Assembly: GCA_013298695.1 (NCBI GenBank)
Contig: JAAFIS010000008.1
Span: 62,001-126,000 of the forward strand
Length of the DNA: 64,000 nucleotides
Reading direction: 5' to 3'
DNA from: Betaproteobacteria bacterium
Lineage (GTDB): Bacteria; Pseudomonadota; Gammaproteobacteria; Burkholderiales; Casimicrobiaceae
Position 1 is the first letter of the stretch. Each line of letters starts with the position of its first letter. The position numbers and the translations under genes are program-made. Shown here in pieces: positions 4,881-63,376 of this stretch. The notes beneath the pieces were generated by a model that searched no databases, was not told where the DNA came from, and saw only the letters and a program-made list of their open reading frames with translations.

Positions 4881-4963
4881 CCCCAACTGAATTGGGCTTT
4901 GTATCGATTAAATACATTGCTCGAAAATAGGTAATTTTACGCGCTTAGCCCAATTAATGCGGG
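4881..4963 (+). repeat. Paired-palindrome intergenic element, copy 1
   Basis: 83 bp. Left arm ccccaactgaattgggc (4881-4897, stem CCCAA/TTGGG) and right arm gcccaattaatgcggg (4948-4963), with an AT-rich middle. The reverse complement of the right arm resembles the left arm (ACCC..A..TTGGGCT). It lies between two co-directional plus-strand genes, DUF192 and the amidase. Confidence 0.75.
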
Positions 4964-4990
4964 TGGAGCGTGTTGTAGCTGAGGACTATT

Positions 4991-6400
4991 GTGACTGACG
5001 ACGTAATTTTTCAGAGCGTGCGCGAACTCTCGCGCCAACTTGTCACTAAGCGCATTTCGTCAGTTGAGTTGCTCGATGCATCGTTCGCGCAGATTGACCG
5101 ATTGAATCCCTCGCTGAATGCAATCGTGACGTTTGATCGCGAAGGCGCTTACGCGAATGCGCGCGCGGTGGACGAGCGTCGCGTTAGCGGAAAACCAACC
5201 TCGCCGCTCGCCGGATTGCCGATTGCAATTAAAGACATGGAGCCGGTGAGAGGCATGCGCACAACGCTTGGCTCACCGATCTACAAAGACTGGATTCCCG
5301 ATTTCGACACGATGATGGTCGAGCGTTTTCGCGCGCACGGATTAACGATTCTCGGCAAAACGAACACGCCCGAATTCGCGCTCGGTTCGCAAACATTCAA
5401 CACCTTGTTCGGTGCCACGAAAAATCCCTGGGATGACAGCAAAACCTGCGGCGGCTCAAGCGGTGGCGCGGCGGTGGCAGCGGCCACAGGAATGATTGCG
5501 TTTGCCGATGGCTCCGACATGGGCGGCAGCTTGCGCAATCCCGCCAACTTCTGCGGAATCGTCGGACTGCGACCTTCACCCGGCCGTGTGCCAGCGTATC
5601 CGGTCGCTAATCAATGGGGCACGCTCGGGGTTCACGGGCCAATCGGACGCACGGCAGAAGACGCCGCGTGGCTGCTCTCGATTCAAGCAGGCGATGATCC
5701 GCGCATCACGCTGGGTTGCTGCGGCGATCCGGGCGTTTATCGCGAACCCCTTGAGCGTGATTTCAAAGGCGTGCGCATTGCGTATGCGCCAACGCTCGGC
5801 GGTTTGCCCGTTGAGAAGCAAGTGCGCGATGCGCTCGATCAATCGATCAAGCGATTCGAGGCGCTCGGCGCGATTGTGGAAGAGGCCGAGCCTGATTTGG
5901 CGATGGCCGACAACGCATTCCAAGTATTGCGCGGTTTGCACTTACTCGGCACCTTGAGCGAGCCTTACAAACATCACAAGCATTTGATGAAAGACACGGC
6001 CGTGTGGAACGTTGAGCAAGGGCTCGCGCTCACCGCCGCACAAATTTCAGAGGCACAGTTGCAGCATTCAAAACTCTTCGAAAGAATGCAGCGTTTTCTA
6101 ACGAAATACGAATACTTGATTTGCCCGGTCAATCAAGTTGCCCCGTTTGATATCAACACGCCGTATCCGATGCAAATCGACGGCGTGCAACTCGACACGT
6201 ATCTTGATTGGATGAAGAGCGCTTTCCGCATCACGATGACGTCGCACCCGGCTGCGAGTGCGCCGGTTGCGTTCACGGCGTCAGGGCTCCCCGTGGGAAT
6301 GCAGATCGTTGGACGCTACGGCTGTGAGCGAGAGGTGTTGCAGCTGGTGCATGCGGTGGAGTTGCCGCTCGCGCACCGCATTGCTCGCGGCATGCTTTAG
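4991..6400 (+). CDS. Amidase signature family amidase
   Basis: 469 residues. The Ser-cisSer-Lys catalytic set is visible: Lys81 in PIAIKDMEP, Ser156 in CGGSSGGAA and nucleophile Ser180 in DMGGSLRNPA. Other family blocks are GKTNTPEFALGSQTFN and the C-terminal GLPVGMQIVGRYG. It hydrolyses an amide (R-CONH2 to acid plus ammonia). It is not a GatA component, since gatB and gatC are absent and the length and context differ. The start is a GTG preceded by gagga at 4981-4985. The gene stands alone, 27 bp after a paired-palindrome element, and converges with an exported hydrolase. The substrate cannot be told from sequence. Confidence 0.87.
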   Translation: MTDDVIFQSVRELSRQLVTKRISSVELLDASFAQIDRLNPSLNAIVTFDREGAYANARAVDERRVSGKPTSPLAGLPIAIKDMEPVRGMRTTLGSPIYKDWIPDFDTMMVERFRAHGLTILGKTNTPEFALGSQTFNTLFGATKNPWDDSKTCGGSSGGAAVAAATGMIAFADGSDMGGSLRNPANFCGIVGLRPSPGRVPAYPVANQWGTLGVHGPIGRTAEDAAWLLSIQAGDDPRITLGCCGDPGVYREPLERDFKGVRIAYAPTLGGLPVEKQVRDALDQSIKRFEALGAIVEEAEPDLAMADNAFQVLRGLHLLGTLSEPYKHHKHLMKDTAVWNVEQGLALTAAQISEAQLQHSKLFERMQRFLTKYEYLICPVNQVAPFDINTPYPMQIDGVQLDTYLDWMKSAFRITMTSHPAASAPVAFTASGLPVGMQIVGRYGCEREVLQLVHAVELPLAHRIARGML

Positions 6401-6439
6401 CAGAAACTCCGGGCACTGCCCGAATGGGTGGTTCTGCAG

Positions 6440-6456
6440 CCGGTGGCTACCACCGG
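6440..6456. repeat. Strong inverted repeat between convergent genes
   Basis: CCGGTGG-cta-CCACCGG, a perfect 7-bp stem with a 3-nt loop, with a second short hairpin (CGGGC-act-GCCCG, 6410-6422) next to it. Both lie in the 75 bp between the convergent amidase and hydrolase genes. Neither is followed by a T-run, so if they help end transcription they do not look like classical intrinsic terminators. Confidence 0.45.
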
Positions 6457-6475
6457 TCCGCTCGATCGGTTCGCG

Positions 6476-7330
6476 TCAGCGCACGCCAAAGTGCTGCGCG
6501 AGAAAGCCGCGCGTCGCGACACGCGCCGCGGGAAGGTTGAGCAACGTGTGTGGCGCGTCGGGCACGAGCACCACTGCAGCGTTTGGATTGTCTTTGAGCA
6601 CCGCGCCGCAGTGACCTTTCGCATCTACGTTTCCCAGCCAGGTATTCGTCTTTGAAAAGAATGGATCTACAGAGCTGATGACGTTTAGCACCGGTTTGGA
6701 CGATTCGAATGCGTTTCTAGGCGCGGTCACGAAGTAATTCGACTCGCAACTCCACGCAAACAGAATACGCGCAGCAAACTCGCTTCCGCTGTATCGTGCA
6801 ACGGGTACAGCGCCTTCGCTGGTGCCCGCCAAAACGAGACGCGACAGATCGACCCACGGCAGAGTTTTTATCGCAGCAAGTGTGGGCTCAATCTCGGAGG
6901 AGCGAAGCGCATGAATGCGCTCATAAACGTCTTTCTCAATGGGTGACTTATAGGTCAATCGGTCCGGTAGCGCGAAAGAATCCGGCGCAACGCTCGCGAT
7001 GCCAAGGCTTGCCAGCCAAGCCTGCCATTCGCCGATCGCTTTCAGACCCAGTCCGGACGATCCGTGCAGAAATAGGACGACCGGAACCCGCGAGGTTGCA
7101 CCCTTTGGCGCGTCCTTTAGTTTTCCAGCAAATGCAGTTCCGCTCGCCGATGGCAGCACTAGGTCGGCGTTATCAACGAGCGCTTTTTTTGATGCTTCGC
7201 TGTGGGTTAACGCGCTGCCCTTTAGCTCGCCTACCGGTGGCGGAGTTTGACCTAGTGCAACGGACGCTATCGCGACGCACGCGATGCTCGCGCAAAGTCT
7301 ACGAAGGTGGCGAGATTTCGACAAGCGCAT
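6476..7330 (-). CDS. Exported alpha/beta hydrolase (dienelactone-hydrolase-like)
   Basis: 284 residues with a signal peptide (about 1-27, ending ASVALGQTP). The alpha/beta-hydrolase pattern is visible: an oxyanion-region HGSSG at 89-93, nucleophile Ser171 in the elbow AGTSEGA, a probable acid Asp222 in SSVDPFF and His261 in DAPHTLL. Such proteins hydrolyse esters, lactones or amides in the periplasm; the substrate is unknown. An even number of cysteines (for example Cys195 and Cys241 in the mature region) would allow a disulfide. The gene is monocistronic, convergent with the amidase, with a 275-bp gap to the next gene upstream in which I see no credible coding frame. Confidence 0.75.
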   Translation of the reverse strand: MRLSKSRHLRRLCASIACVAIASVALGQTPPPVGELKGSALTHSEASKKALVDNADLVLPSASGTAFAGKLKDAPKGATSRVPVVLFLHGSSGLGLKAIGEWQAWLASLGIASVAPDSFALPDRLTYKSPIEKDVYERIHALRSSEIEPTLAAIKTLPWVDLSRLVLAGTSEGAVPVARYSGSEFAARILFAWSCESNYFVTAPRNAFESSKPVLNVISSVDPFFSKTNTWLGNVDAKGHCGAVLKDNPNAAVVLVPDAPHTLLNLPAARVATRGFLAQHFGVR

Positions 7331-7605
7331 TTTGTTTTCCGTGAAGCATCGGTCGCGCTCGTTCGGCGCAACATCCTACGACAGAATAGCATTCGTTCGC
7401 TTTCGCCCTGGCCCGTTTCGAATGACTCGCTAGAGAGCGTTCGAAAATAGTTGAACGAATCTGCGCGAAGCGGTGCACCTCGATTTGGGATGAGCGTCGC
7501 GAAGAGCAGCATAACCACGCTCGCTGCGCTTGCCCGCAACTTTAGAGACGCGAGTCACACAATGCAGGGCTACGCTCGCGTGCGATTAGCTCTCATAACG
7601 TGTTG

Positions 7606-8271
7606 CTAGTATTTCGCGAGGCGCTCACTGAATTCGTCGTTGGCGGTTTTCTGTCCAAGCAACGCAGCTTTTAAGCTTGCGTCTACAGGTTTTGCGCCAA
7701 TCCAAATCTGCGCCATTGCGTCGAAGAAGGATTCGTCTTTAATGATTTCGCCAACGCGCTTACCGTTAACTAACGCAACCACGCCCGTGCCGGGAATCAG
7801 GTCGATCGCCATCGATTCGCCTTTTTTCAGTGACGGTACGACACCAAAAATACCGCCCATTCGAATAATTCCATCGACGTGGCGCACCTGTTCGTCAACA
7901 CTTAAGTTTGCACGAAGTCCATTCATCATGGCGCGGCCGAAGTCGTTGGCGTTGACATCGCGCAGCAAGATCAAATGAATTCGTTTCGCGCCCTTTGCGA
8001 AACGTAGATCGGTTTCGCGCGACACACTATTCTGGGTGTAGAGTGCCGCGCCGTAAACGCGAACAAATCCGCCTGCGGTGTGGCGGATGCCTGCGCCGTT
8101 GAGCTGCAACGTTGTTCCAGCCACTTTTGCACGTTCCTCAAACTTGACGCCGTCGAGCTCAAGTGCTGCTGAAGGAACTGACGCAAGAACTGATGCGGCA
8201 AACAAAACTGACGCTGCAATCGTTTGCAAGTTGAAGACAGAATTTCGCGTATTGTGTGAGATGTTTTTCAT
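7606..8271 (-). CDS. Secreted chalcone isomerase-like family protein (paralog 2)
   Basis: About 221 residues from the ATG at 8271, which has GGAG nine bases upstream and opens directly into a signal peptide (hydrophobic stretch ending ASVPSAALE). A longer reading from 8361 adds 30 residues ahead of the signal and is unlikely. The body aligns along its length with the protein at 486-1136: LNGAGIRHTAGGFVRVY, GAKRIHLILLRDVNANDF, LIPGTGVVALVNGKRVGE and IWIGAKPVDASLKAALLG. Same family, same unknown periplasmic role. The two copies are 6.5 kb apart on the same strand and quite diverged, consistent with an old duplication rather than a recent one. Confidence 0.85.
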   Translation of the reverse strand: MKNISHNTRNSVFNLQTIAASVLFAASVLASVPSAALELDGVKFEERAKVAGTTLQLNGAGIRHTAGGFVRVYGAALYTQNSVSRETDLRFAKGAKRIHLILLRDVNANDFGRAMMNGLRANLSVDEQVRHVDGIIRMGGIFGVVPSLKKGESMAIDLIPGTGVVALVNGKRVGEIIKDESFFDAMAQIWIGAKPVDASLKAALLGQKTANDEFSERLAKY

Positions 8272-8501
8272 GGTGACTCCGAAAAAATTGATGGTGATCA
8301 ACGAACCTCGGTGGTCAACGATCGCTGTAAGTCGCGAAAACGGTGGGTGTGAACCGAGCAATGCGTAATGCTAGGTATGGTGTTAAGCGATGGCTATCAG
8401 ATGATTCCGTAATATTCTGGGATGAAGCTCAGAAATATCCGTAACAGCGTTCCAACCGCCTTTAGCGAACAAAAAGGGTTGGCGAAAATCGCGCGAGGCA
8501 C
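8272..8501. other. Intergenic region between the second chalcone-isomerase-like gene and the gdhA terminator
   Basis: No coding frame, RNA gene or repeat is convincing here. It must contain the minus-strand promoter of the chalcone-isomerase-like gene, whose ribosome-binding site (GGAG in minus-strand reading) is at about 8278-8282. I cannot place -10 and -35 boxes with confidence. Confidence 0.4.
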
Positions 8502-8529
8502 AAAAAAAGCGGCTCCGATTGAAGCCGCT
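8502..8529 (-). terminator. Intrinsic terminator after gdhA
   Basis: On the minus strand this reads AGCGGCT, an 8-nt loop, AGCCGCT, then a run of seven T (the A-run at 8502-8508 on the plus strand). It begins 45 bp past the gdhA stop codon, the expected place and direction for a Rho-independent terminator of that gene. Confidence 0.85.
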
Positions 8530-8574
8530 TCCGTTGCAAACCTTTCGAACGCGCAGTGGTTCGACTAGCGCGAT

Positions 8575-9858
8575 TTATGGATATAGCCCGCGCAGCTCAC
8601 GAGCTGCGAGTACGCGAGTGCACGCAATGATGAACGCCGCTGTGCGCAGCGACACTTTGTGTTTCTCTGACGTATACACAACCGCTTTCAATGCTTCGAC
8701 CATGATGCGCTCGAGTCGGTCGTTGATCTCCGATTCTGTCCAGAAAAAGCTTGAAAAATCTTGCACCCATTCAAAGTAGCTCACGGTCACGCCGCCCGCG
8801 TTGGCGATCACGTCCGGTACCACTTTGATGCCGCGATCATGCAGGATGTCATCAGCTTGCGGTGTGGTCGGACCGTTCGCGCCTTCGACGACGAGCTTCG
8901 TTGAGAGGTTTTGTGCACGCTCTGCGGTGATTTGATTTTCCAGCGCTGCGGGCACGAAGATATCGCTTTTCAACGCCCAGAATTGGTCTTCGCTGATGGC
9001 TGACGCGCCCTTGAATTCGGTGAGTTTGCCGCCTGCTGCGACGTGGGCAAGCGCCGCGTCAACGTCAATACCGGCTTCGTTTCCAATCGAGCCGCTCGCG
9101 TCCTGCAATCCAATAATTTTCGCTCCCGCATCACGAAAGAGACGTGCGCCGATACCGCCGACGTTGCCAAATCCTTGCACAACGATCCGTGCACCAGTGA
9201 TGTCCATTTTCATCGCGCGTGCTGTTTCACGCGCGGCGATGTACACGCCGCGTCCCGTCGCTTCTTTGCGACCCAAAGAGCCACCGAGCGCGATCGGTTT
9301 GCCAGTGACGACGCCAGTTGAGGTCGCACCGGTATTCATCGAATAGGTGTCCATCATCCACGCCATGATCTGGTCGTTAGTGTTGACATCGGGCGCCGGA
9401 ATATCTTTATCTGGCCCGATGATGAGACCGATTTCACTGGTGTAGCGGCGGGTCAAACGCTCGAGTTCAGGGCGTGTGAGGGTTTTCGGATCAACACGAA
9501 TTCCGCCTTTAGCGCCGCCGTACGGCAGATTAAGTGCCGCATTTTTGACCGTCATCCACGCCGAGAGCGCCATCACCTCGTCGATGGTGACGTCGGGGTG
9601 GTAGCGAACGCCGCCTTTGCCCGGCCCGCGTGACATGTTGTGTTGCGCCCGAAAGCCTTCAAAGTGCGCGACCGTTCCGTCGTCGCGGTTGATCGGAATA
9701 TCGACCGCAAGCACGCGTTTGCAGCGTTTGAGCGTTTCAACCCATTTCTCGAGATGCCCTAAATGCGGCGCTACGCGGTCAACCTGTTGAAGGTAGACCT
9801 GCCAAGGACTGTTGGGATTGTTTGGAACGTATGAGAGCCCGGATTTGCTCGAATGCAT
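8575..9858 (-). CDS. gdhA: Glutamate dehydrogenase (Glu/Leu/Phe/Val dehydrogenase family)
   Basis: About 427 residues from the ATG at 9858. Catalyses oxidative deamination of glutamate to 2-oxoglutarate, or the reverse, in the cytoplasm. Visible motifs are [11 protein letters not shown] and [10 protein letters not shown] around the catalytic lysines, [17 protein letters not shown], and the Rossmann motif [15 protein letters not shown]. The C-terminal half has [13 protein letters not shown] and [17 protein letters not shown] longer frame starting at 9963 adds 35 residues with no family similarity, so the internal ATG before [19 protein letters not shown] is preferred; neither start has a strong ribosome-binding site. 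The gene is followed by a good terminator and lies divergent from a glutamate/aspartate-type binding protein, a sensible functional pairing. Coenzyme preference cannot be read off reliably. Confidence 0.92.
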
Positions 9859-10129
9859 GAAAAGTGACGCTAGCTGCCCGCTTTTTGGGTGGGCGCTGAA
9901 CGTTGAGTGAAGGAAGTCACGCAATGTAGGGGTTTCTGCGCGCGCTCGCCAATGCTTTTCCATTCAAAACTTATGCAAAAAACCGATGACAGGCATAGAA
10001 AGTGCAACTACATTTACCGAACGACGTGCCGAGCAGAGCGGGTAGGCGTGGTCGAAAAAGCAAGAGCGTGCACACGCCTACGTTTGATTGACAGGTTGTA
10101 TTTTTTTATTGGTTTCCGGAGGTTGTGGA

Positions 10130-11008
10130 ATGGGTTCAGTATCTCGATTCGTATGCAGTTCGGCTGCGTCAGCGTTATGTTTTGTCGCCGCGGCATCAGT
10201 ACATGCCGATACTTTGGCCAAGATAAAAAAATCGGGTGAGTTTGTGCTCGGGCATCGCGAAAGCTCATCCCCGTTTTCGTTTAACGCGGATAACGGCACT
10301 GCGGCCGGTTACACCGTAGACATTTGTTTGCGCGTCTTTGAGCAAATCAAAGAAGAGCTCAAAATGAAGGACCTGAAGCTCAAATACGTCGCCGTGAAAC
10401 CCGCCGATCGGATCGCCGCGGTGAAAGACGGTCGCATCGACGTGGAATGCGGATCAACGACCAACACCGCCGCACGGCAAAAAGACGTTGCGTTTAGCTA
10501 CACGACGTTCGTCGCGGGCGCACGATTGCTCGCGAAGAAAGACGCGAAGCTCGGCGACATCGACAAGATGAAGGGTAAATCGCTTGCCGTCACCGAGAAG
10601 ACGACGACGGAGCGAGTGATCAATCAAACCAACGCCGAGCGCAACTTAGGCCTGAAGATCGTGGTCGCGAAAGATCACCCTGAAGGCTTCAAGAAAATGG
10701 AAACCGGCGAGGTCGATGCGGTCGCCAACGACGACGCGCTTTTGCTCGGGCTTGCAGCGCGCGCGGCAAACCCTTCGCAATACGATTTTGTTGGGAAGTT
10801 TTTATCGGTCGAGCCGTACGGAATCATGTTCAGAAAAGACGATCCGGCCTTCGCGGCGGTTGTTGACAAAGCCGTCGGCAAGCTTTTCGGCACCGGCGAG
10901 ATTTTCAAGATTTACGCCAAGTGGTTTGAATCGGGCACGTTCAAATTGCCGATGAACCAATACATGAAAGAAAACGTGCGCTTGCCGAACAAATACGGCG
11001 TGCAATAG
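10130..11008 (+). CDS. Amino-acid ABC transporter periplasmic binding protein (GltI-like)
   Basis: About 292 residues with a signal peptide ending ASVHA before DTLAKIKKSGEFVLGHRE. The mature part has the family-3 solute-binding fold (bacterial extracellular binding proteins, SBP_bac_3). Blocks such as SSSPFSFNADNGTAAGYTVD, RIDVECGSTTNT and FSYTTFVAGARLLAKK resemble the glutamate/aspartate binding protein GltI. The start at 10130 follows a textbook ribosome-binding site (CGGAGG, 10117-10122); an upstream in-frame start at 10088 is rejected because it precedes that site. No permease or ATPase gene is next to it, so the membrane partners must be encoded elsewhere. Its position divergent to gdhA fits glutamate uptake feeding catabolism, but this is inference. 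Confidence 0.87.
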   Translation: MGSVSRFVCSSAASALCFVAAASVHADTLAKIKKSGEFVLGHRESSSPFSFNADNGTAAGYTVDICLRVFEQIKEELKMKDLKLKYVAVKPADRIAAVKDGRIDVECGSTTNTAARQKDVAFSYTTFVAGARLLAKKDAKLGDIDKMKGKSLAVTEKTTTERVINQTNAERNLGLKIVVAKDHPEGFKKMETGEVDAVANDDALLLGLAARAANPSQYDFVGKFLSVEPYGIMFRKDDPAFAAVVDKAVGKLFGTGEIFKIYAKWFESGTFKLPMNQYMKENVRLPNKYGVQ

Positions 11009-11084
11009 GCATTTTGAGTACTGCTTGCGCGCGAAAAATCCGTGCAAAGTTGTTGGTATTGCGCGTTCAGCTTATCTTTTAAAA

Positions 11085-11169
11085 CGCCCATTCGTATGGG
11101 CGATGCTCGAATATCGGCGTTATATTGATATAGTATCGAAAGTAGTGTTTATCCCCGTATAACCGCCGG
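11085..11169 (+). repeat. Paired-palindrome intergenic element, copy 2 (diverged right arm)
   Basis: 85 bp. The left arm is a perfect 7-bp hairpin, CGCCCAT-tcgt-ATGGGCG (11085-11102). The right arm (atccccgtataaccgccgg, about 11151-11169) keeps only the CCC...GG frame. It lies between the convergent binding-protein and flavodoxin-fold reductase genes. The spacing matches the other copies. Confidence 0.5.
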
Positions 11170-11220
11170 TGTAGAGATAAGTCCGGGTGTTAACCAATCG
11201 TCGGCATCCACACTCAAACC

Positions 11221-12799: not shown

Positions 12800-12827
12800 G
12801 TTTTTCGATTTAAGGTTTGCGAAACGT

Positions 12828-15894: not shown

Positions 15895-15941
15895 CGTGAG
15901 GCAAAACACTCGGTGTAAGGTGAATAAAGTTTTCTGCGCAA

Positions 15942-16024
15942 GCCAGCATGAGTTGGGCAAAAAGCGGATTTAATGATTAACTAGATAATTACAGTAAACT
16001 GTACATATGCCCAATTAAATAGGC
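15942..16024 (+). repeat. Paired-palindrome intergenic element, copy 3
   Basis: 83 bp. Left arm gccagcatgagttgggc (15942-15958) and right arm gcccaattaaataggc (16009-16024). The middle is AT-rich and holds an extra small inverted repeat, ACAGT-aa-ACTGT (15991-16002). It lies between two minus-strand genes, upstream of serB and 32 bp past the stop of the MBL-fold gene. Confidence 0.75.
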
Positions 16025-16056
16025 GTTGTGATGCGGCAGCCATAGTAAAAAAGTAG

Positions 16057-24287: not shown

Positions 24288-24352
24288 CGTCGCACATCCA
24301 GCGACGCCGATGTCGTCGCGAAGCAGAGGGTAGACGGATAACGATGTCAAAT

Positions 24353-24434
24353 GCCGTTTAAGCCGGGCTCGCATCCTCGTAACCTAATTTTACGTCTTAG
24401 CAACGAATAGGCCGACCAGCCTAAGTAAGCTGGG
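24353..24434 (+). repeat. Paired-palindrome intergenic element, copy 5 (diverged)
   Basis: 82 bp. Left arm gccgtttaagccgggc (24353-24368), similar to the left arms of the copies at 22432 and 31751. The right arm holds the stem CCAGC-ctaagtaa-GCTGG (24416-24433) but no GCCCAATT. It lies between the convergent LysE and spermidine-synthase-like genes. Membership rests on the left arm and the constant length. Confidence 0.55.
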
Positions 24435-24479
24435 GTAGAAAGCCTAAAGCTGCAATAGTTTTTGCAGATCTGTCGTTGC

Positions 24480-31715: not shown

Positions 31716-31750
31716 CGTCGGTGGCGAGATCGGTTGGCTTTTTAGCTGTT

Positions 31751-31834
31751 GCGCCGTTTTTAGTGGGCGATACGCGTCATAATTGTAGTTAACGAGAATG
31801 AGCAATTATTTAGTAATCGCCCAATTAAATGCGG
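31751..31834 (+). repeat. Paired-palindrome intergenic element, copy 6
   Basis: 84 bp. Left arm gcgccgtttttagtgggcga (31751-31770), right arm tcgcccaattaaatgcgg (31817-31834). GGGCGA of the left arm (31765-31770) is exactly complementary to TCGCCC of the right arm (31817-31822), so a long-range stem is also possible. It lies between nusB and thiL, both on the plus strand. Confidence 0.8.
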
Positions 31835-31884
31835 AGCTAGGCGGTGAAGCTCATTTCCGCACGCACCTGTTGACAAACTGTAGT

Positions 31885-41020: not shown

Positions 41021-41473
41021 ATGAAACTCAACGTGAACGGCAAATCAGTTAATTTTGAAGGTGATCCCGATACCCCGATTCTTTGGGTGCTACGCGATCA
41101 TCTCGATGTCACATCGCCGAAATTTGGCTGTGGCATGGCGCTCTGCGGAGCCTGCACTGTGCATCTCGATGGCGCTCCGATTCGCTCTTGCTCAACGCCC
41201 GTGAGTGCGGCCTCTGGCAAACGCATCACAACCGTTGAAGGCCTGCCCGCAAAGCTTGGCAAAGCGCTGCAAGATGCGTGGATCGCAGAGGAAGTACCGC
41301 AGTGCGGCTACTGCCAAACCGGCCAGATGATGAGCGCAGCGGCGCTGTTGACGACGAATAAAAACCCGTCAACCGAACAAATCGTTTCTGCGATGGACGG
41401 CAACGTTTGCCGCTGTGGCACCTACACCCGAATCCAAAAAGCAATTTCGCGCGCAGCGAAATCAGCGGCCTAA
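41021..41473 (+). CDS. iorA: [2Fe-2S] small subunit of a molybdenum hydroxylase (isoquinoline 1-oxidoreductase type)
   Basis: 150 residues. All eight cluster cysteines are visible: the plant-ferredoxin-type [17 protein letters not shown] with a fourth Cys in RSCSTPV, and the C-terminal cluster in [18 protein letters not shown] and [12 protein letters not shown]. It passes electrons from the molybdopterin centre of the large subunit. Start supported by AAGGAGG at ideal spacing. It lies directly upstream of the large subunit (14-bp gap), forming a two-gene operon. Confidence 0.92.
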
Positions 41474-41487
41474 ACGGAGGACTGATC

Positions 41488-43647
41488 ATGAACAAAAATC
41501 GTCTTCTCGACAAAGTAGCTTCCGATACAGCTAGCAGCTCTCGACGCCAATTTATTAAGGCGACGAGCGCACTGTCTGGCGCACTCGTGATCGGATTTAA
41601 TCTGCCTGAAGCCCGAGCAAAAGCGGCGGCTGCAGCAAATAGCGCTTCGGTATCCAATGCGTGGGTTAAGGTGGCCGGTGACGGCAGTGTGACGCTCATT
41701 TGCCATCGTTCAGAAATGGGGCAGGGCGTCTACACATCGATGCCGATGCTGGTTGCCGAGGAACTCGGCGTTCCGTTGTCTGCGGTGAAAATTGAAATGG
41801 CACCCTCGGCTCCGGTCTACATCAACGCGATGCTGGGCGGGCAAATTACCGGTGGTTCCACCTCGGTTCGTGATGCCTGGACCAAGCTTCGCGAAGCGGG
41901 TGCTTCTGCGCGCAGCGTGCTCGTTGCGGCCGCGGCTGACAATTGGAAAGTGCCTGCAAGCGAATGCACGACCGCCAATGGCGTGGTGATGCATAAGAGC
42001 GGAAAAAAAGCGACTTACGGCTCGCTCGTCGGCAAAGCTTCGACCATGAAAATGCCAGAGAAGGTGGTGCTTAAAGACGCCAAAGACTGGACGATTATCG
42101 GCAAGCAAAAAGCACGCGTTGACACACCCGCTAAGGTGTACGGAAAAGCGCAGTACGGCATCGATGTGAAGCTCCCGGGCATGCTCGTGGCATCGCTCGC
42201 ACAAGCACCGGTGATCGGTGGCAAAGCGGTAAAGGTAAACGACGCAAAAGCAAAAGCTGTGAAGGGCGTTGTACAAGTCGTGCAAATTCCAGACGGCGTT
42301 GCGGTGCTTGCGAAAGATTTCTACACCGCTAAAAAAGGCCGTGACGCGCTTGAGATCGATTGGGATAACGGGCCGAACGAGCGCCTTGATATGTTGCGCA
42401 TCGAACAAGATTTGCGCACCGCATCTGTGGGCACTGGCGCGATCATGCGCAAAGAAGGCACGGGCGACGCGGCCCTTGAAAAATCCGCGAGCAAGGTCGA
42501 AGCCGAATACATGCTGCCGTTTCTTGCGCATGCAACGCTCGAGCCGGTGAACTGCACGGCCGAAATCAAGAACGGCGAATGCCACATCACCGGCCCGATC
42601 CAATTCCAGCAAGGCGCTCAGTATGGCGTCGCCGCAGCGGTCAAAATGCCGCCGGAAAAGGTTTTTATTCACACTACGTTTTTAGGCGGCGGTTACGGCC
42701 GGAAGCTGGAGCTTGATTTCCAGATTCAAGCTGCGCAAATCGCGCAAGCAGCGGGCAAGCCGGTGAAATTGGTGTGGTCGCGCGAAGACGATATGAAGCA
42801 CGATTTCTATCGCCCAATTTCGCTCCACCAAATGACCGCCGGGCTCGACGACAAAGGCAATATTCAAGCGTTGCATTTCAAGATGACGTCGCCTTCGGTG
42901 ACCGCGCGCGCATTTCCCCCCGTAGTTCAAAACGGCAAAGATCCGTTCATGGCCGAGGGCTCGGAAAACTTGACGTACAAAGTGCCTAACTTGTCCATCG
43001 AAAACGTGATCCACGACACTGGCATCCGTGTTGGCTATTGGCGCAGCGTTTCTAACGCGCTCAATGCGTTCGCGGTCGAGAGTTTCATGGATGAAATCGC
43101 CGCGCAAACAAAGAAAGACCCGGTTCAATTGCGGATGGATTTGCTCGCTCACGACAAACGTTCACAAAACGTTTTGAAGCTCGCGGCAGAGCGCGCTGGT
43201 TGGGGTAAAGCCGCCGCCGGACGCGCCTTGGGCGTCGCGCAAATGGAGTGTTACGGTACCCATTCAGCAGTGGTGGCCGAGGTGTCGATGACGAAGGACG
43301 GACCCAAAGTTCACAAGATCACTGCGGTTGTGGATTGTGGCATCGTGGTGCATCCAGATCAGGCGCTCGCGCAGATGGAATCGGGCATTCTGTTGGGCCT
43401 CGGAAGTGGCATGAAAAACGAGATCACCTTCAAAGACGGTGTCGTTGAGCAAAACAACTTCCACGACTATCAGATGCTGCGCATGAGCGAAGTCCCGCAA
43501 ATGGACATTACGTTTGTATCGAGCGCAGCTGCGCCCGGCGGTCTAGGCGAGGTGGGCGTCCCGCTGGTGATGCCAGCGGTGGCAAACGCGATTGCCGCGC
43601 TGAATGGAAAACGTGTGCGAAAGCTTCCGCTGATGCAAAACGTCTAG
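41488..43647 (+). CDS. iorB: Molybdopterin-binding large subunit (IorB-like), Tat-exported
   Basis: About 719 residues from the ATG at 41488, which follows ACGGAGG. The N-terminus carries a twin-arginine motif SSRRQFIKATSALSGALVIGF. Xanthine-dehydrogenase-family blocks: MGQGVYTSMPMLVAEELGV, GGQITGGSTSVRDAW, TFLGGGYGRKLELDFQIQA, YWRSVSNALNAFAVESFMDEIA and the late AAPGGLGEVGVPLVMPAVANAIAAL with the catalytic Glu. IorB proteins hydroxylate N-heterocycles or aldehydes with molybdenum-cytosine dinucleotide. With its Tat signal the complex is likely periplasmic and would need an electron acceptor, which is not encoded here. The substrate is not predictable. Confidence 0.9.
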   Translation: MNKNRLLDKVASDTASSSRRQFIKATSALSGALVIGFNLPEARAKAAAAANSASVSNAWVKVAGDGSVTLICHRSEMGQGVYTSMPMLVAEELGVPLSAVKIEMAPSAPVYINAMLGGQITGGSTSVRDAWTKLREAGASARSVLVAAAADNWKVPASECTTANGVVMHKSGKKATYGSLVGKASTMKMPEKVVLKDAKDWTIIGKQKARVDTPAKVYGKAQYGIDVKLPGMLVASLAQAPVIGGKAVKVNDAKAKAVKGVVQVVQIPDGVAVLAKDFYTAKKGRDALEIDWDNGPNERLDMLRIEQDLRTASVGTGAIMRKEGTGDAALEKSASKVEAEYMLPFLAHATLEPVNCTAEIKNGECHITGPIQFQQGAQYGVAAAVKMPPEKVFIHTTFLGGGYGRKLELDFQIQAAQIAQAAGKPVKLVWSREDDMKHDFYRPISLHQMTAGLDDKGNIQALHFKMTSPSVTARAFPPVVQNGKDPFMAEGSENLTYKVPNLSIENVIHDTGIRVGYWRSVSNALNAFAVESFMDEIAAQTKKDPVQLRMDLLAHDKRSQNVLKLAAERAGWGKAAAGRALGVAQMECYGTHSAVVAEVSMTKDGPKVHKITAVVDCGIVVHPDQALAQMESGILLGLGSGMKNEITFKDGVVEQNNFHDYQMLRMSEVPQMDITFVSSAAAPGGLGEVGVPLVMPAVANAIAALNGKRVRKLPLMQNV

Positions 43648-45661: not shown

Positions 45662-45819
45662 GCCGCAAAGTGTAGCGAGCTAAAAATTACGCACAGCTCA
45701 GCGCGGTGGCGCGGCGCGTCAGATGCGAAATTTGAACCTCGATCTTCGAAAACCTTGCACTTAATGTGCGAAAACTTCGGCCAAGCGCCCCGCAAATCCG
45801 TAAGCAGCTCGCGCGCAAG

Positions 45820-45904
45820 TCACCCGATTTAGCTGGGTGACACGCTAAATAAAAGTACGTCTCGAAACTCTGATTAATTTCGCGCGCTGCCCAAATAAAT
45901 CGGT
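45820..45904 (+). repeat. Paired-palindrome intergenic element, copy 7
   Basis: 85 bp. The left arm is a 6-bp perfect stem, TCACCC-gatttagct-GGGTGA (45820-45840). The right arm is gcccaaataaatcggt (45889-45904). CCGATTTAGCTGGG (left) and CCGATTTATTTGGG (reverse complement of right) agree at 11 of 14 positions. It lies between two minus-strand genes. Confidence 0.78.
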
Positions 45905-45942
45905 CAATACGCGTGATAGCTGTATTGCTTGCAAAGCGCCAA

Positions 45943-56744: not shown

Positions 56745-56747
56745 GCT

Positions 56748-58763: not shown

Positions 58764-58911
58764 CCGCGTATTATCCTCTGCTCACGACGCGATAAATCTG
58801 GCGCTTTTCGCCACAATCTTGTCTAAATGCGCGGTGATGTCGGTTTTTTCGCCGTACGCAGCGCTTCTGTGGCGGTTTGTTGAGCCATTGTGTGCTTTTC
58901 GCATGGCTTGA

Positions 58912-58934
58912 TAGCGCCTGCGAATGAGGCGCTA
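58912..58934. promoter_or_regulatory. 8-bp inverted repeat upstream of the response-regulator gene
   Basis: TAGCGCCT-gcgaatg-AGGCGCTA, 36 bp before the ATG at 58971. A second, weaker repeat (AGCCAT...ATGGCT, 58883-58908) sits next to it. Neither is followed by a T-run. Could be an operator or an mRNA leader structure. Confidence 0.4.
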
Positions 58935-58970
58935 CTCGACGCGGGCACGGATTCCGGCTAGATTAGCGGT

Positions 58971-59489
58971 ATGAGCATTTTCGATATTTTTAAGCGTCCG
59001 AAGACGTCAGAGCCGCCCGTGCTGCGCAGCGAGACGCCTGCGGAGCGTCGCGCCAAACCCCGCAAAAACGCCCGACCCGGCACCAAAATTCTCATCATCG
59101 ATGATTCAAAGACGGTGTGCACCGTGCTTCGAAAAATGTTGCGCGAGAACGGCTTCACCACCTTTGAGGCCTACGATGCCGAGTCCGGTATCGAAGTTGC
59201 CCGCACCGAACAGCCCGAGCTTATTTTTTTGGATATCGTTTTGCCGGGGATCAATGGCTTTGAAGCGCTGCGAAGAATTCGACGCGATAATGATTTGATG
59301 CACGTGCCCGTCATCATGATCAGCGGCAACGAGAGCGCAACCGAGCAGTTCTATGTTCAGCGGATCGGTGCCAACGATTTTATGAAAAAGCCGTTTTCTC
59401 GTGCAGAAGTCTTCTCGCGGGTTGAGCGTGTTATGAATTTGGTGCCAACCGTGTTGAAGCTCACGCCGTCTACCGAGATGGTGCGCTAA
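58971..59489 (+). CDS. Single-domain response regulator
   Basis: 172 residues. One receiver domain (about 37-155) with the acidic pocket Asp44-Asp45 in LIIDDSKTV, phospho-acceptor Asp88 in LIFLDIVLPG, Ser118 in MISGN and Lys140 in FMKKPF. No output domain follows, so it probably acts by protein-protein contact, as CheY, PilG or PilH do. The 36-residue N-terminal extension is basic (RRAKPRKNARPG). No sensor kinase is adjacent, so the cognate partner is elsewhere. It is followed 63 bp later by aroK. Confidence 0.88.
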   Translation: MSIFDIFKRPKTSEPPVLRSETPAERRAKPRKNARPGTKILIIDDSKTVCTVLRKMLRENGFTTFEAYDAESGIEVARTEQPELIFLDIVLPGINGFEALRRIRRDNDLMHVPVIMISGNESATEQFYVQRIGANDFMKKPFSRAEVFSRVERVMNLVPTVLKLTPSTEMVR

Positions 59490-59552
59490 CGCCGCGGCGC
59501 GCACACAACATTTCCGCACCTTGCGAGCCGCGAGCGGCCGCATCGCACTCTC

Positions 59553-60176
59553 ATGCACGAACCGAACCACAGCATCGATGAACCGGCTCGCCTAACGGAA
59601 TTCGCGTCCGCAGAATCTGCATCGGTAGTCGACATCGAGACCGCTCAGTATCCGAACCGACCCATCGTGCTGATCGGTCCGATGGGCGCAGGCAAAACTA
59701 CGATTGGAACACTGCTCGCGAAGCGGCTTGGACGCAAGTTTGTCGATTCCGATCACGTGCTCGAAGACAAAACCGGCGTGAGTGTGGCCACGATTTTCGA
59801 AATCGAAGGCGAAGTTGCATTTAGAGAGCGCGAGGCACATTTGCTCGAAGAGTTGTGTCAATCCGATGCCGCGATTGTTCTTTCAACGGGAGGCGGATCT
59901 ATTCTTCGCGAATCGACTCGTGTCATGTTGCGAGCAAGAGCCATCGTGGTGTATCTCCACGCGTCGCCAGATGTTTCGTATGAACGAGTGAAGCGCGCAA
60001 AAGACAGACCGCTGCTGAGAACGCCCGATCCTGCGCAAAAGCTGCGCGAGCTCTATGACGTTCGACATCCGCTTTACTTGGAAACGGCGCATTTCCGAGT
60101 TGAAAGTCATCGCGAGCGACCCGGGCAAGTGATCGAAGATATTGTTTCGCTGATCGAGCAATCGCAACAATTTTAA
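59553..60176 (+). CDS. aroK: Shikimate kinase
   Basis: 207 residues. It phosphorylates shikimate in aromatic amino-acid synthesis. P-loop GPMGAGKTT (residues 42-50), shikimate-binding FVDSDHVLEDKTG, RERE in VAFREREAHLLEELC, STGGGSILRESTR, and the lid RPLLRTPDP. The first ~35 residues are an extension that the E. coli enzyme lacks. In many betaproteobacteria aroK is followed by aroB; here the next gene is on the opposite strand. An aroE fragment appears at the right edge of the window. Confidence 0.95.
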   Translation: MHEPNHSIDEPARLTEFASAESASVVDIETAQYPNRPIVLIGPMGAGKTTIGTLLAKRLGRKFVDSDHVLEDKTGVSVATIFEIEGEVAFREREAHLLEELCQSDAAIVLSTGGGSILRESTRVMLRARAIVVYLHASPDVSYERVKRAKDRPLLRTPDPAQKLRELYDVRHPLYLETAHFRVESHRERPGQVIEDIVSLIEQSQQF

Positions 60177-60177
60177 G

Positions 60178-61023
60178 CTAAGGTTCGTCGCCAGTATTGT
60201 CGCGCGCGTCGTTTTCGCCCGCGCTTGACTCAACGCCGCGCAGCGCGGCTTCAAACTGCGGACGCCACGCAAAACTTGCCTCGGTTGATCCCGACGGGCG
60301 ATATTCGCAACCCACGTAGCCCGAATATCCGCTCGCTGCGACGGAGCGAGCGAAGGCTTCGAAATCAATCGCACCGGTGCCGGGTTCATTGCGCCCTGGT
60401 GCGTCGGCGATTTGGATGTGCCCAACGCGTGATCGATGCATTGCAAACTGAAGCAACACTTCGTGTTCGGTCATTTGCACGTGATAAGCATCGAACATCA
60501 ATGCGACGTTGGCTGTGGAAAGCTGCGCAAGAATTTCCGCAGCTTGATCTTGATCTGACAGGAAATAATGTGGGCGATCCGCCGCGTTCAACGGTTCAAT
60601 CAGGAGCCGAATTTTGTGTGGCTGAGCCAACCGCGCCGCCATCTCAAGGTTCTCAATAAACACCGATTTGTGCGGCCCTCGCTCAGCGCCGAGGGGCACG
60701 TTGCCTGCGAGTACATGAATGTTTGGGCACGCGAGCGACTTTGCGTATTCGAGCGCGAGTTCAAATTGGTGGTGAAACTCGTTCTGGCGCTCCCGAAAAA
60801 TAGCGAGCCCGAATTCGCCGTTGTCGGGGTCGCCCGGCGGCGTGTTGAGGCTCACTAAATCCAGCTCATGGCGTTCTAGCTGCTCGGCAATTTGTGCGGT
60901 TGAATGCTGGTATGGAAACCAGCATTCAACCGCACTCAATCCGCAATCGGCTGCTCGAGCGAAGCGCTCGAGAAACGGCACTTCAGTGAACATGATTGAG
61001 ATATTGGCGCTGAGCTTCACCAT
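60178..61023 (-). CDS. hyi: Hydroxypyruvate isomerase family protein
   Basis: 281 residues, a xylose-isomerase-like TIM barrel. Start KLSANISIMFTEVPFLERFARAADCG and later VECWFPYQHST, LLIEPLNAADRPHYFL, VALMFDAYHVQMTEHEVLLQF, VGHIQIADAPGRNEPGTGAIDF and GYVGCEYRPSG are typical of Hyi. It interconverts hydroxypyruvate and tartronate semialdehyde in glyoxylate/glycerate metabolism. No gcl or glxR gene is adjacent, so the substrate remains inferred. The C-terminal ~20 residues are acidic and non-conserved. One base separates its end from the aroK end on the opposite strand. Confidence 0.88.
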   Translation of the reverse strand: MVKLSANISIMFTEVPFLERFARAADCGLSAVECWFPYQHSTAQIAEQLERHELDLVSLNTPPGDPDNGEFGLAIFRERQNEFHHQFELALEYAKSLACPNIHVLAGNVPLGAERGPHKSVFIENLEMAARLAQPHKIRLLIEPLNAADRPHYFLSDQDQAAEILAQLSTANVALMFDAYHVQMTEHEVLLQFAMHRSRVGHIQIADAPGRNEPGTGAIDFEAFARSVAASGYSGYVGCEYRPSGSTEASFAWRPQFEAALRGVESSAGENDARDNTGDEP

Positions 61024-61039
61024 AGATCAGAGTGCCACG

Positions 61040-61771
61040 CTACCGAAATGCGTAATCGGCGATCAGCGAACGCCTGCGCATGCATACGTTGCGCGCACGC
61101 AAACTGGTGAATTCCGGCAGCGCCTGTGCAAGCGTGCGCGAATCGAGATCGCCGAAGCGACGAACTTTGCCTTCGCTGCAAGCGCTGGTGCCACGACCCG
61201 GTCGATCGCCCATCTCGATTTCAAACGGCGCAGGCGGCTCGCTCAGGTTTTGCAAGAGCGAAGTGTGCGTGCGATTCGGCTCGCTAAACACCATGCTCGG
61301 TGCGGTGCGACGCCTCGAAGTGTGCGCTGGGAAAGTGTCGCTAGCAACGCCTGCAGTACGACCGTTTGCGGCGCTGGCTGGCGATAGCGACATAGGTAGC
61401 GGCGTGCGCGATGGCGCACTAATGGCGTTGGTCGCTGCTGCCGCGCTAGAAAACACAGGACTGGTTTTCGCGGCGCGCGCGCCTTGCTGCGATGCGACGC
61501 GCGCGGCTTCGAGCTTGCGCTGCGCAATCAGGCGGTCACGGGGTGCCAGTGAGTTTGGAGGCGTCTTCCGCTCACGTTTTGCTGTCGATTTACGGGTTGG
61601 GTCAGTGCTGAGCGCAGCGCGCGTTGCTGCGGATTCGGTGCCTGTAGATGCGCTCAGAACTCTCGCGTTGAGGGAGCCGTTGGTATTCTCGCTCGCAAGC
61701 GTGAACGACGAGAGCGTCGCGACACCGAGCACGAGCCCAATCAGCTTGAAGACGCCGTCGCCCAATCGCAT
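61040..61771 (-). CDS. Hypothetical secreted protein, low-complexity
   Basis: About 243 residues from the ATG at 61771. The N-terminus (MRLGDGVFKLIGLVLGVATL) looks like a signal peptide. The rest is rich in Ala, Ser, Thr and Arg, with no recognisable domain; two Cys near the end (SACSEG and NVCMRR). The frame reaches 61801 with a TTG. A slightly longer frame exists antisense (61080-61895), but it has no signal or domain either, so I favour the minus strand. It is 16 bp from hyi on the same strand, but with no clear connection. Function unknown. Confidence 0.5.
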   Translation of the reverse strand: MRLGDGVFKLIGLVLGVATLSSFTLASENTNGSLNARVLSASTGTESAATRAALSTDPTRKSTAKRERKTPPNSLAPRDRLIAQRKLEAARVASQQGARAAKTSPVFSSAAAATNAISAPSRTPLPMSLSPASAANGRTAGVASDTFPAHTSRRRTAPSMVFSEPNRTHTSLLQNLSEPPAPFEIEMGDRPGRGTSACSEGKVRRFGDLDSRTLAQALPEFTSLRARNVCMRRRSLIADYAFR

Positions 61772-61919
61772 TCGTATCACCGCGCACCCCGTAATTGCCA
61801 AATCGAGAAGCAGCGTAGTCGCTCATCGAGTCGGTCATATTTTGCGCGTAACGCTCGGGCTTTACCAGCGCAAACTCGCTAGTCTCCCTCACTAATGGGA
61901 TATAGCTAGCGTCGTACTA

Positions 61920-62004
61920 CGCCCTAAAAGATGGGTGATAACGTTAAAAAATTGAGTTTTCGAAACAAAGCGAAAATTCGTTTACGGCCCAATTGAATAG
62001 GGCC
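61920..62004 (+). repeat. Paired-palindrome intergenic element, copy 9
   Basis: 85 bp. Left arm cgccctaaaagatgggtga (61920-61938), right arm GGCCC-aattgaata-GGGCC (61986-62004). It lies between two minus-strand genes, 23 bp past the stop codon of the fructose-bisphosphate aldolase gene. Confidence 0.78.
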
Positions 62005-62027
62005 ATAAGTGTAATTTTTGTTGGCGA

Positions 62028-63059
62028 CTATTTTGCTGCGCTTTCGCTCTCAATCGTCCACTTACCTTTTGCCGCGAGGGAATTCATCTTGCAGCGATGC
62101 GCAAACGCGTTTTGAGCGGCTTTATAGTTTTCTGGCTTACCGCGCCACACTTTGAGCGCAGCGAAGTGCAGCGCGCGACTGTAGCTAAACGTAAGCGGCC
62201 ACGGATTGCCCTCACGTACACCCGGCTTGTTCATTTCGTTTAAGTGAGCGGCGGAGTCAATGTCGCTTTGTCCGCCCGAAAGGAACACGATGCCAGGCAT
62301 CGCTGCAGGAATCGTGCGCTTTAACACCTCAACGGTGCGCGCGCCGACTTCGGCTTGGCTTGCCCGATTCTTGGCATCTTTGCCGCTCAACACCATGCTC
62401 GCCTTCAGAATTGTGTGTTCGATCGACACTTTGTTATCGGCGAGTTGGCTCATCATGGTGCGCAGCATCGCCTCTGTCACGTCGAAACAGCGATCGATGG
62501 AGTGGTCGCCGTCGAGCAACACTTCGGGTTCCACCACTGGGATGATGTTTGCTTCCTGACAAATCGCCGCGTAACGAGCTAGCGCATGCGCGTTTGCCCA
62601 AATACAGCGCGATGTAGGGATGGCCTCACCAATGGTGATCACCGCGCGCCATTTCGCAAAGCGTGCGCCCATTGCGAAATACTCTTTCATACGCTTTTGT
62701 AGGCCGTCGAGGCCGTCGGTGACGAGCTCGCCCGGTGCCATCGCTAGATCGCGCGTGCCGCCATCGACTTTGATACCGGGAATCACGCCTATTGAATTGA
62801 GATAGTCAGCGAACGACTGGCCGCTTGAATGCTGTTGTCGAATTGTTTCATCATGCAGGATCACTCCAGAAATCGTTGATTTCATGGCGGGCGTTGTAAA
62901 CAGCATTTCGCGGTAAGTGCGACGCATCTCCTCGCTATCGGCGACACCGGCCGCGGCGAAACGTTTGGCACAGGTGCCGGCCGATTCGTCGGCAGCGAGT
63001 AGGCCTTTTCCAGGGGCAACGAGGGCTTTAGCGGTGGCGGAGAGAAGAGTGCGATCCAT
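62028..63059 (-). CDS. Class I fructose-bisphosphate aldolase
   Basis: 343 residues. Metal-independent (Schiff-base) aldolase that splits fructose 1,6-bisphosphate. The start TAKALVAPGKGLLAADESAGTCAKRF is typical of the eukaryote-like class I family; Lys146 (GARFAKWRAV) and the Schiff-base Lys219 (EHTILKASMVL) are present, as are VVEPEVL and FLSGGQSDIDS. Most betaproteobacteria rely on class II enzymes, so a class I copy is notable but not rare. The gene is monocistronic, flanked by two copies of the paired-palindrome element. Confidence 0.93.
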   Translation of the reverse strand: MDRTLLSATAKALVAPGKGLLAADESAGTCAKRFAAAGVADSEEMRRTYREMLFTTPAMKSTISGVILHDETIRQQHSSGQSFADYLNSIGVIPGIKVDGGTRDLAMAPGELVTDGLDGLQKRMKEYFAMGARFAKWRAVITIGEAIPTSRCIWANAHALARYAAICQEANIIPVVEPEVLLDGDHSIDRCFDVTEAMLRTMMSQLADNKVSIEHTILKASMVLSGKDAKNRASQAEVGARTVEVLKRTIPAAMPGIVFLSGGQSDIDSAAHLNEMNKPGVREGNPWPLTFSYSRALHFAALKVWRGKPENYKAAQNAFAHRCKMNSLAAKGKWTIESESAAK

Positions 63060-63293
63060 AGCTCAATAGTGTGGTGGGGTTGAAGTCAAAAAACTGCTGA
63101 GATTCTACGAGGCGAGGTGGACGAGCGCCTGGTCGCGGCAATAGCGCAGCGTGAGTGGAATCTTGATCGCGCTCGCCGTGAGGAGTGCGCGATGTCGCCA
63201 AATGCACACGCTGCCAAACCGGCGTGCACGCGCCACATAGCGTGGCTTGATCGAAATGCCGACGTTTAGCGGAACTAAATTTGTTGCGGTAAA

Positions 63294-63376
63294 GCGACTA
63301 AATTGGGGGAGAAAGGAGGGTTGTCAGCAGTCTTAAGTGCGCAGTGAAAACTGATGTACGCCCGTTAAAACGGGGC
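63294..63376 (+). repeat. Paired-palindrome intergenic element, copy 10
   Basis: 83 bp. Left arm gcgactaaattggggg (63294-63309), right arm gcccgttaaaacggggc (63360-63376, stem CCCGT/ACGGG). Spacing matches the other copies; arm sequence is more diverged. It lies in the divergent region between the aldolase and EF-hand genes. Confidence 0.55.

What the first reader, a model, noticed from the sequence alone, without database searches (positions are those of the whole stretch)
4881..63376. Ten dispersed 82-85 bp intergenic elements made of two inverted quasi-palindromes
Copies at 4881, 11085, 15942, 22432, 24353, 31751, 45820, 48765, 61920 and 63294. Each has a left arm CC-N8-12-GGG and a right arm with core gcccaattaaat-N-gg, about 66 bp centre to centre. 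The arms of a copy resemble each other in inverted orientation (45820: 11 of 14 bases; 31751: GGGCGA pairs with TCGCCC), while the AT-rich middles are not conserved between copies. All are intergenic, about one per 6 kb. Constant length with a free interior suggests two phased protein-binding sites or a BIME-like structure. I do not recognise the family.
Basis: seen in the sequence. Interest (0 to 1): 0.75.

Follow-up and report, generated by a model that had tools for sequence, protein, structure and literature searches.

The report
Evenly spaced 120-bp mirror-symmetric chromosomal sites
An uncultured genus of betaproteobacteria carries hundreds of mirror-symmetric, roughly 120-base-pair sites, fairly evenly spaced, mostly just after genes but sometimes built into coding sequence, which look like docking sites for an unidentified protein rather than jumping DNA.

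Summary
The ten copies are real and belong to a genome-wide family: 81 exact right-arm cores against 0 for the reversed control; about 720 copies extrapolated. The unit is a dyad of about 116-120 bp centred on TC|GA, larger than reported: A/T blocks at +-13, arms at +-33.5, AGCT/AGTT ends at +-56. Half-to-half spacing is held to about +-1 bp. Compensatory pairing was not found, so duplex DNA bound by a two-fold symmetric protein is likely. Spacing is more even than chance in three of five genomes tested. Copies favour gene ends and were found only in this genus among genomes searched, each species with its own arm "dialect". They need no insertion: in lpxH a copy lies in coding sequence that aligns without gaps to 15 orthologues, 13 lacking it; hutF is similar. 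Gyrase, REPIN and terminator readings were tested and disfavoured. Best reading: an in-situ maintained protein-binding site, probably for chromosome topology or organisation; an uptake-signal-like drive is the main rival. The protein is unknown.

The parts
4863..4982 (.). dyad element, centre 4922.5
   Evidence: 73.4 bits
11067..11186 (.). dyad element, centre 11126.5, between convergent genes
   Evidence: 40.0 bits; context
15924..16043 (.). dyad element, centre 15983.5
   Evidence: 53.0 bits
22414..22533 (.). dyad element, centre 22473.5; relatives L031, L032 and L033 also carry one just upstream of the same 1192-aa gene
   Evidence: 49.2 bits; relatives
24334..24453 (.). dyad element, centre 24393.5, between convergent genes
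   Evidence: 28.3 bits; context
31734..31853 (.). dyad element, centre 31793.5
   Evidence: 68.9 bits
44684..44803 (.). eleventh element, not in the finding, centre 44743.5
   Evidence: 22.1 bits; 38.7 with refined matrix
45804..45923 (.). dyad element, centre 45863.5
   Evidence: 58.8 bits
48746..48865 (.). dyad element, centre 48805.5
   Evidence: 67.5 bits
61902..62021 (.). dyad element, centre 61961.5
   Evidence: 59.5 bits
63275..63394 (.). dyad element, centre 63334.5 (weakest of the ten)
   Evidence: 22.2 bits; 31.6 with refined matrix
41527..41646 (.). probable in-gene element, centre 41586.5, inside the ORF at 41407-43647 (molybdopterin-binding domains)
   Evidence: 6.3 bits; 35.2 bits with refined matrix against a shuffle maximum of 8.4; Pfam; the true start of this ORF is uncertain

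Best explanation
Each copy is a dyad-symmetric double-stranded DNA site of about 120 bp that is bound by an as yet unidentified two-fold symmetric protein assembly. It reads the centre, the arms and the outer AGCT/AGTT ends, with the two halves held at a fixed distance. The sites are kept in place by selection on point mutations, not by transposition. They sit fairly evenly, every 5-12 kb depending on species, preferentially just past gene ends and between convergent genes, where transcription stops and positive supercoiling is expected to collect. The most likely job is chromosome organisation or topology: a boundary, anchor or topology-buffering complex at the ends of transcription units. 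Shown: architecture, copy number, spacing, placement, in-situ origin in genes, dialects. Inferred: the protein and its task.
For: Gap-free dyad in 30 copies. 109 sites in 464 kb above a shuffle maximum of 8.4 bits, some of them 66-bp shadows of strong sites; 82 at score above 25 with shadows merged. Sharp half-to-half spacing. No base-pair covariation beyond shuffles. Spacing CV 0.58 against 0.96 for uniform placement and 0.92 for placement among intergenic gaps, 0 of 2000 simulations as low in either; also in 200 kb of G002 (0.59, P 0.001) and of G010 (0.47, P 0.0007). Gap occupancy: convergent 14/25, tandem 37/120, divergent 8/43. Orthologous long gaps: 4 occupied in both species, 1 in one, 14 in neither, Fisher P 0.0013. 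A copy 3' of hutF in 8 of 13 species. Copies inside hutF and lpxH without insertion of an element.
Against: No binding protein was identified and no expression, ChIP or contact data exist here. Information per site (40 bits in G000, 61 in G005, somewhat inflated because sites were picked by score) far exceeds what locating the sites needs (12.5 and 13.6 bits), which is unusual for plain binding sites and fits a drive process better. Even spacing is not significant in the window alone (P 0.17), G011 (0.29) or G012 (0.42), where few sites were available. Tandem and divergent gaps do not differ significantly in occupancy (P 0.16). 34 of 113 strong half-sites have no partner. The orthologous-gap pairs overlap in species and one of the four is the hutF place; two pairs with a short gap in one species have the copy in one species only.
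Confidence: 0.45

Rival explanations
1. A DNA-uptake or self-recognition signal spread by molecular drive, like the DUS/USS of Neisseriaceae and Pasteurellaceae but much larger: incoming DNA with the site is favoured, so copies form in situ everywhere, including in genes, and the dialect changes with the receptor.
For: In-situ origin in genes, species dialects at an orthologous place, even spacing, a large excess of information over need, a wide range of densities within one genus. The DUS paper reports eight dialects, common intragenic copies and inverted pairs associated with terminators (PMC3630211, passages).
Against: A 120-bp dyad with +-1 bp spacing is far from 10-12-bp DUS. ComEC (PF03772) is present in 28 of 30 genomes searched, with or without the element, so it does not discriminate. 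No receptor was sought.
Confidence: 0.25
2. High-affinity DNA gyrase sites, kept at gene ends because gyrase may be the only type IIA topoisomerase of these bacteria.
For: Size, dyad and gene-3' position agree with the 120-130-bp symmetric gyrase motif (PMC6379681, PMC12324340, passages). G000 has one PF00521 protein; 9 of 12 genomes of other families have two. The G000 G+C profile peaks locally at the expected dyad of the annotated phage Mu gyrase cut (z 2.44, position rank 274 of 36578).
Against: G+C period is 9.5 bp, with 0.01-0.02 of the power at 10.5, against 10.75 in E. coli. In my mapping of the published positions, G000 has A, not T, at +3.5 and little C at +5.5, where gyrases agree (profile, paper). 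Arm dialects differ between species whose GyrA C-terminal domains are 97-99% identical. Not found in G016, G017 and G018, which also have one PF00521 protein. The Mu site is not a top hit, and the G005 and mean profiles do worse there (z 1.62, rank 1994; z 2.0, rank 870).
Confidence: 0.08
3. A miniature mobile element (REPIN, MITE or ERIC-like) with decayed copies.
For: Inverted arms with fixed spacing, hundreds of copies, mostly intergenic, found only in one genus. In G013 two nearly identical half-copies 2.4 kb apart. Copies in G000 are slightly more alike than matrix-simulated ones (mean 49.6 against about 45.8 of 120).
Against: No near-identical full copies: best pair 68 of 120 among 79 in G000, 66-78 in G002, G010, G011 and G012. 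The lpxH copy lies in an alignment without gaps over 16 species, 13 of them without the element; in hutF G002 has the same length without the element, and ten others are only 4 residues shorter. The RAYT-like gene has a different GTAG-type REP beside it. REPIN doublets were reported to be randomly placed (PMC3116915, passages); these are evenly placed.
Confidence: 0.07
4. Bidirectional transcription terminators or RNA hairpins at gene ends.
For: Element centre lies a median 85 bp past the stop codon in G000, leaving little room for another terminator. Terminator-like hairpins by my own crude scan are slightly rarer where an element is present: 36 of 103 against 94 of 205, P 0.087; by genome P 1.0, 0.12 and 0.03.
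Against: Copies inside genes; no covariation in hairpins or across the dyad; conserved centre and fixed spacing are unexplained; no Rfam match at gathering thresholds in the window.
Confidence: 0.07

Closest known systems
DNA uptake sequences of Neisseriaceae (DUS) and Pasteurellaceae (USS)
   Same: Dispersed chromosomal sequence, intragenic and intergenic, species dialects, inverted pairs near gene ends (PMC3630211, passages).
   Different: Here about 120 bp, a rigid dyad with several sub-sites, fewer copies (about 360 in G005 and 720 in G000 by extrapolation, against 943 to 5918 in the passages seen); no link to uptake shown.
REPINs / BIMEs (REP doublets)
   Same: Inverted pair at fixed spacing, hundreds of copies, mostly outside genes; BIME position at gene 3' ends is recalled.
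   Different: No insertion in genes, no near-identical full copies, evenly spaced, extra conserved centre and ends, no link to the RAYT-like gene.
Strong DNA gyrase sites (Mu SGS, E. coli gyrase motif)
   Same: Two-fold symmetric, 120-130 bp, enriched past transcription units.
   Different: Different core letters, 9.5-bp instead of 10.75-bp period, dialects without matching GyrA change.
ERIC / other short palindromic repeats (recalled, not tested by sequence)
   Same: About 120 bp, imperfect palindrome, intergenic.
   Different: Here most columns are unconserved between copies and the in-gene copies are not insertions.

Membership tests
REPIN/RAYT | RAYT gene flanked by the same repeat | tested here: not met
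   Single PF01797 hit in G000 (C1:100270-100635); the one side that I read carries GTAGGGTGGGCAC-type palindromes; nearest dyad elements are about 2 and 5 kb away
REPIN/RAYT | Copies are insertions, many identical | tested here: not met
   Best full-copy pair 68/120 in G000, up to 78/120 elsewhere; in-gene copies without insertion in hutF and lpxH
REPIN/RAYT | Two inverted palindromes at fixed spacing | tested here: met
   in G011 and G013 several arms are mirrored about the dyad but not themselves palindromic
Gyrase site | Symmetric 120-130-bp motif | tested here: met
Gyrase site | About 10.75-bp G+C period in the flanks | tested here: not met
   Best period 9.5-9.6 over +-62 bp; 10.5 holds 0.01-0.02 of the power
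Gyrase site | -4G/+8C and -2A/+6T around the cut | tested here: not met
   My mapping: T at +3.5, C at +5.5 from the dyad. G000: A 0.61 and T 0.26 at +3.5, C 0.15 at +5.5; G005: T 0.75 at +3.5 (agrees), C 0.13 at +5.5
Gyrase site | Register with a known strong gyrase site (Mu) | tested here: inconclusive
   z 2.44 (G000), 1.62 (G005), 2.0 (mean) at 17881.5; not a top hit
DNA uptake sequence | Dispersed copies formed in situ, with dialects | tested here: met
DNA uptake sequence | Promotes uptake of DNA; cognate receptor | not testable with these tools
   needs transformation assays; ComEC presence does not discriminate
DNA uptake sequence | Short motif (about 10-12 bp for DUS) | tested here: not met
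   116-120 bp dyad with 40-61 bits
Structured RNA / cruciform | Compensatory base pairs | tested here: not met
   Over five measures the observed value is reached by 29 to 402 of 500 shuffles (dyad) and 85 to 420 (arm hairpins); covariation score 77/500 and 206/500

The most novel reading that the evidence does not exclude
A new class of chromosomal signal: a nucleosome-sized, dyad-symmetric site repeated every 5-12 kb, written into intergenic DNA and into genes by point mutation (in hutF and lpxH with amino-acid differences at the same place), read by an unknown symmetric protein machine whose arm specificity drifts into species dialects while the architecture stays fixed.
Probability: 0.4. 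Interest if true: 0.85.

Novelty: new variant of a known kind. Interest (0 to 1): 0.7.

Why it matters
If it is a chromosome-organising site, it would give bacteria a near-periodic, sequence-defined architectural element at transcription-unit ends, in a lineage that may lack topoisomerase IV, and would let one ask how a protein and hundreds of sites change dialect together. If it is an uptake signal, it would be by far the largest that I know of. Either way the in-gene copies suggest pressure strong enough to be seen over conserved protein sequence.

Tried and rejected
Rfam and tRNA scans of the window: nothing. Cruciform/RNA hairpin: no covariation. REPIN/RAYT. Gyrase: attractive at first (size, dyad, gene ends, one PF00521 protein), then disfavoured by period, core letters and GyrA conservation. 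Insertion at the dyad centre by another mobile element, suggested by half-copies: most half-copies in G005, G011, G012 and G013 keep the central GTCGA and lose one side; no split pair was seen in the stretches held. Terminators: inconclusive to negative. SMC and ComEC family counts did not discriminate. Searching for a regulator gene near clustered sites: only a list of neighbouring genes was made. Paper searches listed nothing that I recognised as a description of such an element; only listings, start of abstracts and passages were seen, so this is weak evidence of absence. Gene calls are from my own ORF scorer, not a standard annotator; starts are uncertain. Matrices were refined on the same data they count, with shuffles as control; some low-scoring hits are probably false (one search shows several for G013, whose matrix was then rebuilt from four clean copies).
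Full report
OBSERVATION. The window lies in an uncultured betaproteobacterium (G000, 4.08 Mb in 22 contigs); a 1192-aa window protein has its closest named hits, up to 89% identity, in Betaproteobacteria/Burkholderiales MAGs. The exact right-arm core occurs 81 times, the reversed control 0 times. Thirty of these 81, aligned without gaps, show a dyad at TC|GA. A symmetric matrix from these 30, none of them from the window, finds all ten reported copies at 22-73 bits against a shuffle maximum of -5.5, plus one at 44743.5. All ten are intergenic by my ORF calls.

ANATOMY. From the centre outwards (G000, 109 sites in 464 kb, symmetrised): TCGA, A at 3.5; A/T at 12-15; weak G/C at 17-20; GCCC at 25.5-28.5; A/T 29-36; GGG(C) at 38-41; A/T at 43-44; A/T at 52-54, then AGCT/AGTT to about 58. 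Total about 116-120 bp. The 109 include 66-bp shadows of strong sites; with shadows merged and score above 25 there are 82, which scales to about 720 in the genome. Of 113 strong half-sites (left and right halves counted apart), 60 have a partner at the standard distance, 7 at -1, 6 at +1, 2 at -2, 1 at +2, 3 further off, and 34 none. Among 79 copies the best pair agrees at 68 of 120 positions; matrix-simulated sets reach 62-65 in the ten sets printed, and the mean pair is 49.6 against about 45.8. So the copies are a little more alike than the matrix predicts, but not recent duplicates. Best pairs in G010, G012, G011 and G002 are 75, 78, 72 and 66.

NOT BASE-PAIRED. Left and right halves of one copy match each other hardly better than those of different copies (24.2 against 23.5 matches, z 1.5). 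On the 41-sequence alignment the covariation score across the dyad is reached by 77 of 500 shuffles and within arms by 206 of 500; over all five measures by 29 to 402 and 85 to 420. In G011 and G013 several arms are mirrored about the dyad but not palindromic themselves. This points to a bound duplex.

PLACEMENT. Of intergenic gaps of 110 bp or more in 464 kb, 14 of 25 convergent, 37 of 120 tandem and 8 of 43 divergent are occupied (convergent against divergent P 0.003, against tandem P 0.02, tandem against divergent P 0.16). Among 55 element-bearing 3' ends in G000 the centre is a median 85 bp past the stop. Spacing is under-dispersed: 79 intervals, CV 0.58 against 0.96 for uniform placement and 0.92 for random choice among gaps, 0 of 2000 simulations as low. 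It is also so in 200 kb of G002 and of G010; the window alone, G011 and G012 are not significant; G005, sampled in separate stretches, was not tested. In 20 samples of 20 kb round the G005 chromosome the counts are 0 to 3, with no visible trend.

RELATIVES. With model R1, tuned to G000, 12 of 30 genomes match, all of them among the 17 of the genus. G012, G013 and G007, missed by R1, show copies in their own dialect. With a multi-species model, 5 of 399 genomes sampled over the order match (stricter filters, 8 candidates scored per genome), all in the genus, of which six were in the sample; G016 and the other family members do not match, and G008 does, at four or more places, though none was seen in 39.5 kb of it. 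Each species keeps the dyad, A/T at about 13 and the AGCT end but has its own arm letters, for example GCCATATTT.ATAAGGC in G010 and CGACCG...CGGTCG in G012. At the 3' end of hutF 8 of 13 species have a copy in their own dialect while the surroundings have diverged; G001, G003 and G004 show none there and G000 and G009 have one inside the gene. In conserved gene pairs with gaps of 100 bp or more in both species the copy is in both 4 times, in one once, in neither 14 times (P 0.0013). These pairs share species and one is the hutF place; two more pairs, with a short gap in one species, have the copy in one species only.

IN-GENE COPIES. 16 of 82 sites in G000 and 10 of 38 in G002 lie in called genes; in G005, G010 and G013 none of 33, 24 and 7; in G011 and G012 1 of 15 and 1 of 9. 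Ten G000 host ORFs were scanned and nine have Pfam domains. In lpxH (named by me from the GNRDF motif; Pfam says calcineurin-like phosphoesterase) the scores are 52.4 in G000, 25.3 in G002 and 17.3 in G009, and 0.0 or lower in 13 others, with zero gaps in all 16 alignments. In hutF (formimidoylglutamate deiminase) the copy scores 49.7 in G000 and 36.6 in G009; in the other 11 orthologues the best score is 0.9 or lower. There G002 has exactly the same length without the element, and the other ten are 4 residues shorter at one point, far less than the roughly 39 codons of an element. No other site above 0 bits lies in the 4.4-kb hutF loci of G000 and G009, so the downstream site seen in 8 species appears to be replaced there by an internal one. 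I conclude that these copies arose by point mutation (with, at most, a 4-codon length change in hutF), not by insertion of an element.

WHAT BINDS. The gyrase idea was tested hardest. For it: the size, the dyad, gene ends, one PF00521 protein in 13 of 17 genus members (four fragmented drafts show two partial hits) against two in 9 of 12 genomes of other families, and a local peak at the annotated Mu gyrase cut with the G000 profile (z 2.44; 1.62 and 2.0 with the other two profiles; not a top hit). Against it: a 9.5-bp rather than 10.75-bp period, the wrong core letters in G000, and GyrA C-terminal domains 97-99% identical among G005, G011 and G012 and 98% between G000 and G010 although arm letters differ. 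The gyrase papers and the DUS and REPIN papers were read as passages only.

MECHANISM. I infer a two-fold symmetric protein assembly that holds about 120 bp near the ends of transcription units at fairly regular intervals, most likely for chromosome topology or organisation. The main rival is a molecular-drive process like uptake sequences, favoured by the excess of information per site (40 and 61 bits against 12.5 and 13.6 needed; the sites were picked by score, which inflates it), the dialects and the in-gene copies. The present data cannot separate these.

Noticed in passing
G000 genome and its genus: One DNA_topoisoIV-type (PF00521) protein in G000 and in 13 of 17 genus members (four fragmented drafts have two partial hits), also in G017 and G018, against two in 9 of 12 genomes of other families: this lineage may lack ParC/topoisomerase IV.
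   Followed up: partly
G000 C1:100270-101100: A RAYT-like Y1 transposase gene next to GTAG-type REP palindromes (GTAGGGTGGGCAC..GTGCCCACC), different from the dyad elements.
   Followed up: partly
G013, L297 3083.5 and 5497.5: Two nearly identical half-elements 2.4 kb apart, possibly a tandem duplication; other half-elements keep one side and the central GTCGA.
   Followed up: partly
Genus-wide: Density differs strongly between species: none found in G016, at least four places in G008, about one per 12 kb in G005, one per 5-6 kb in G000.
   Followed up: partly
window 41407-43647: ORF with molybdopterin-binding domains overlaps a likely element near its called start; the true start may lie further in.
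   Followed up: no
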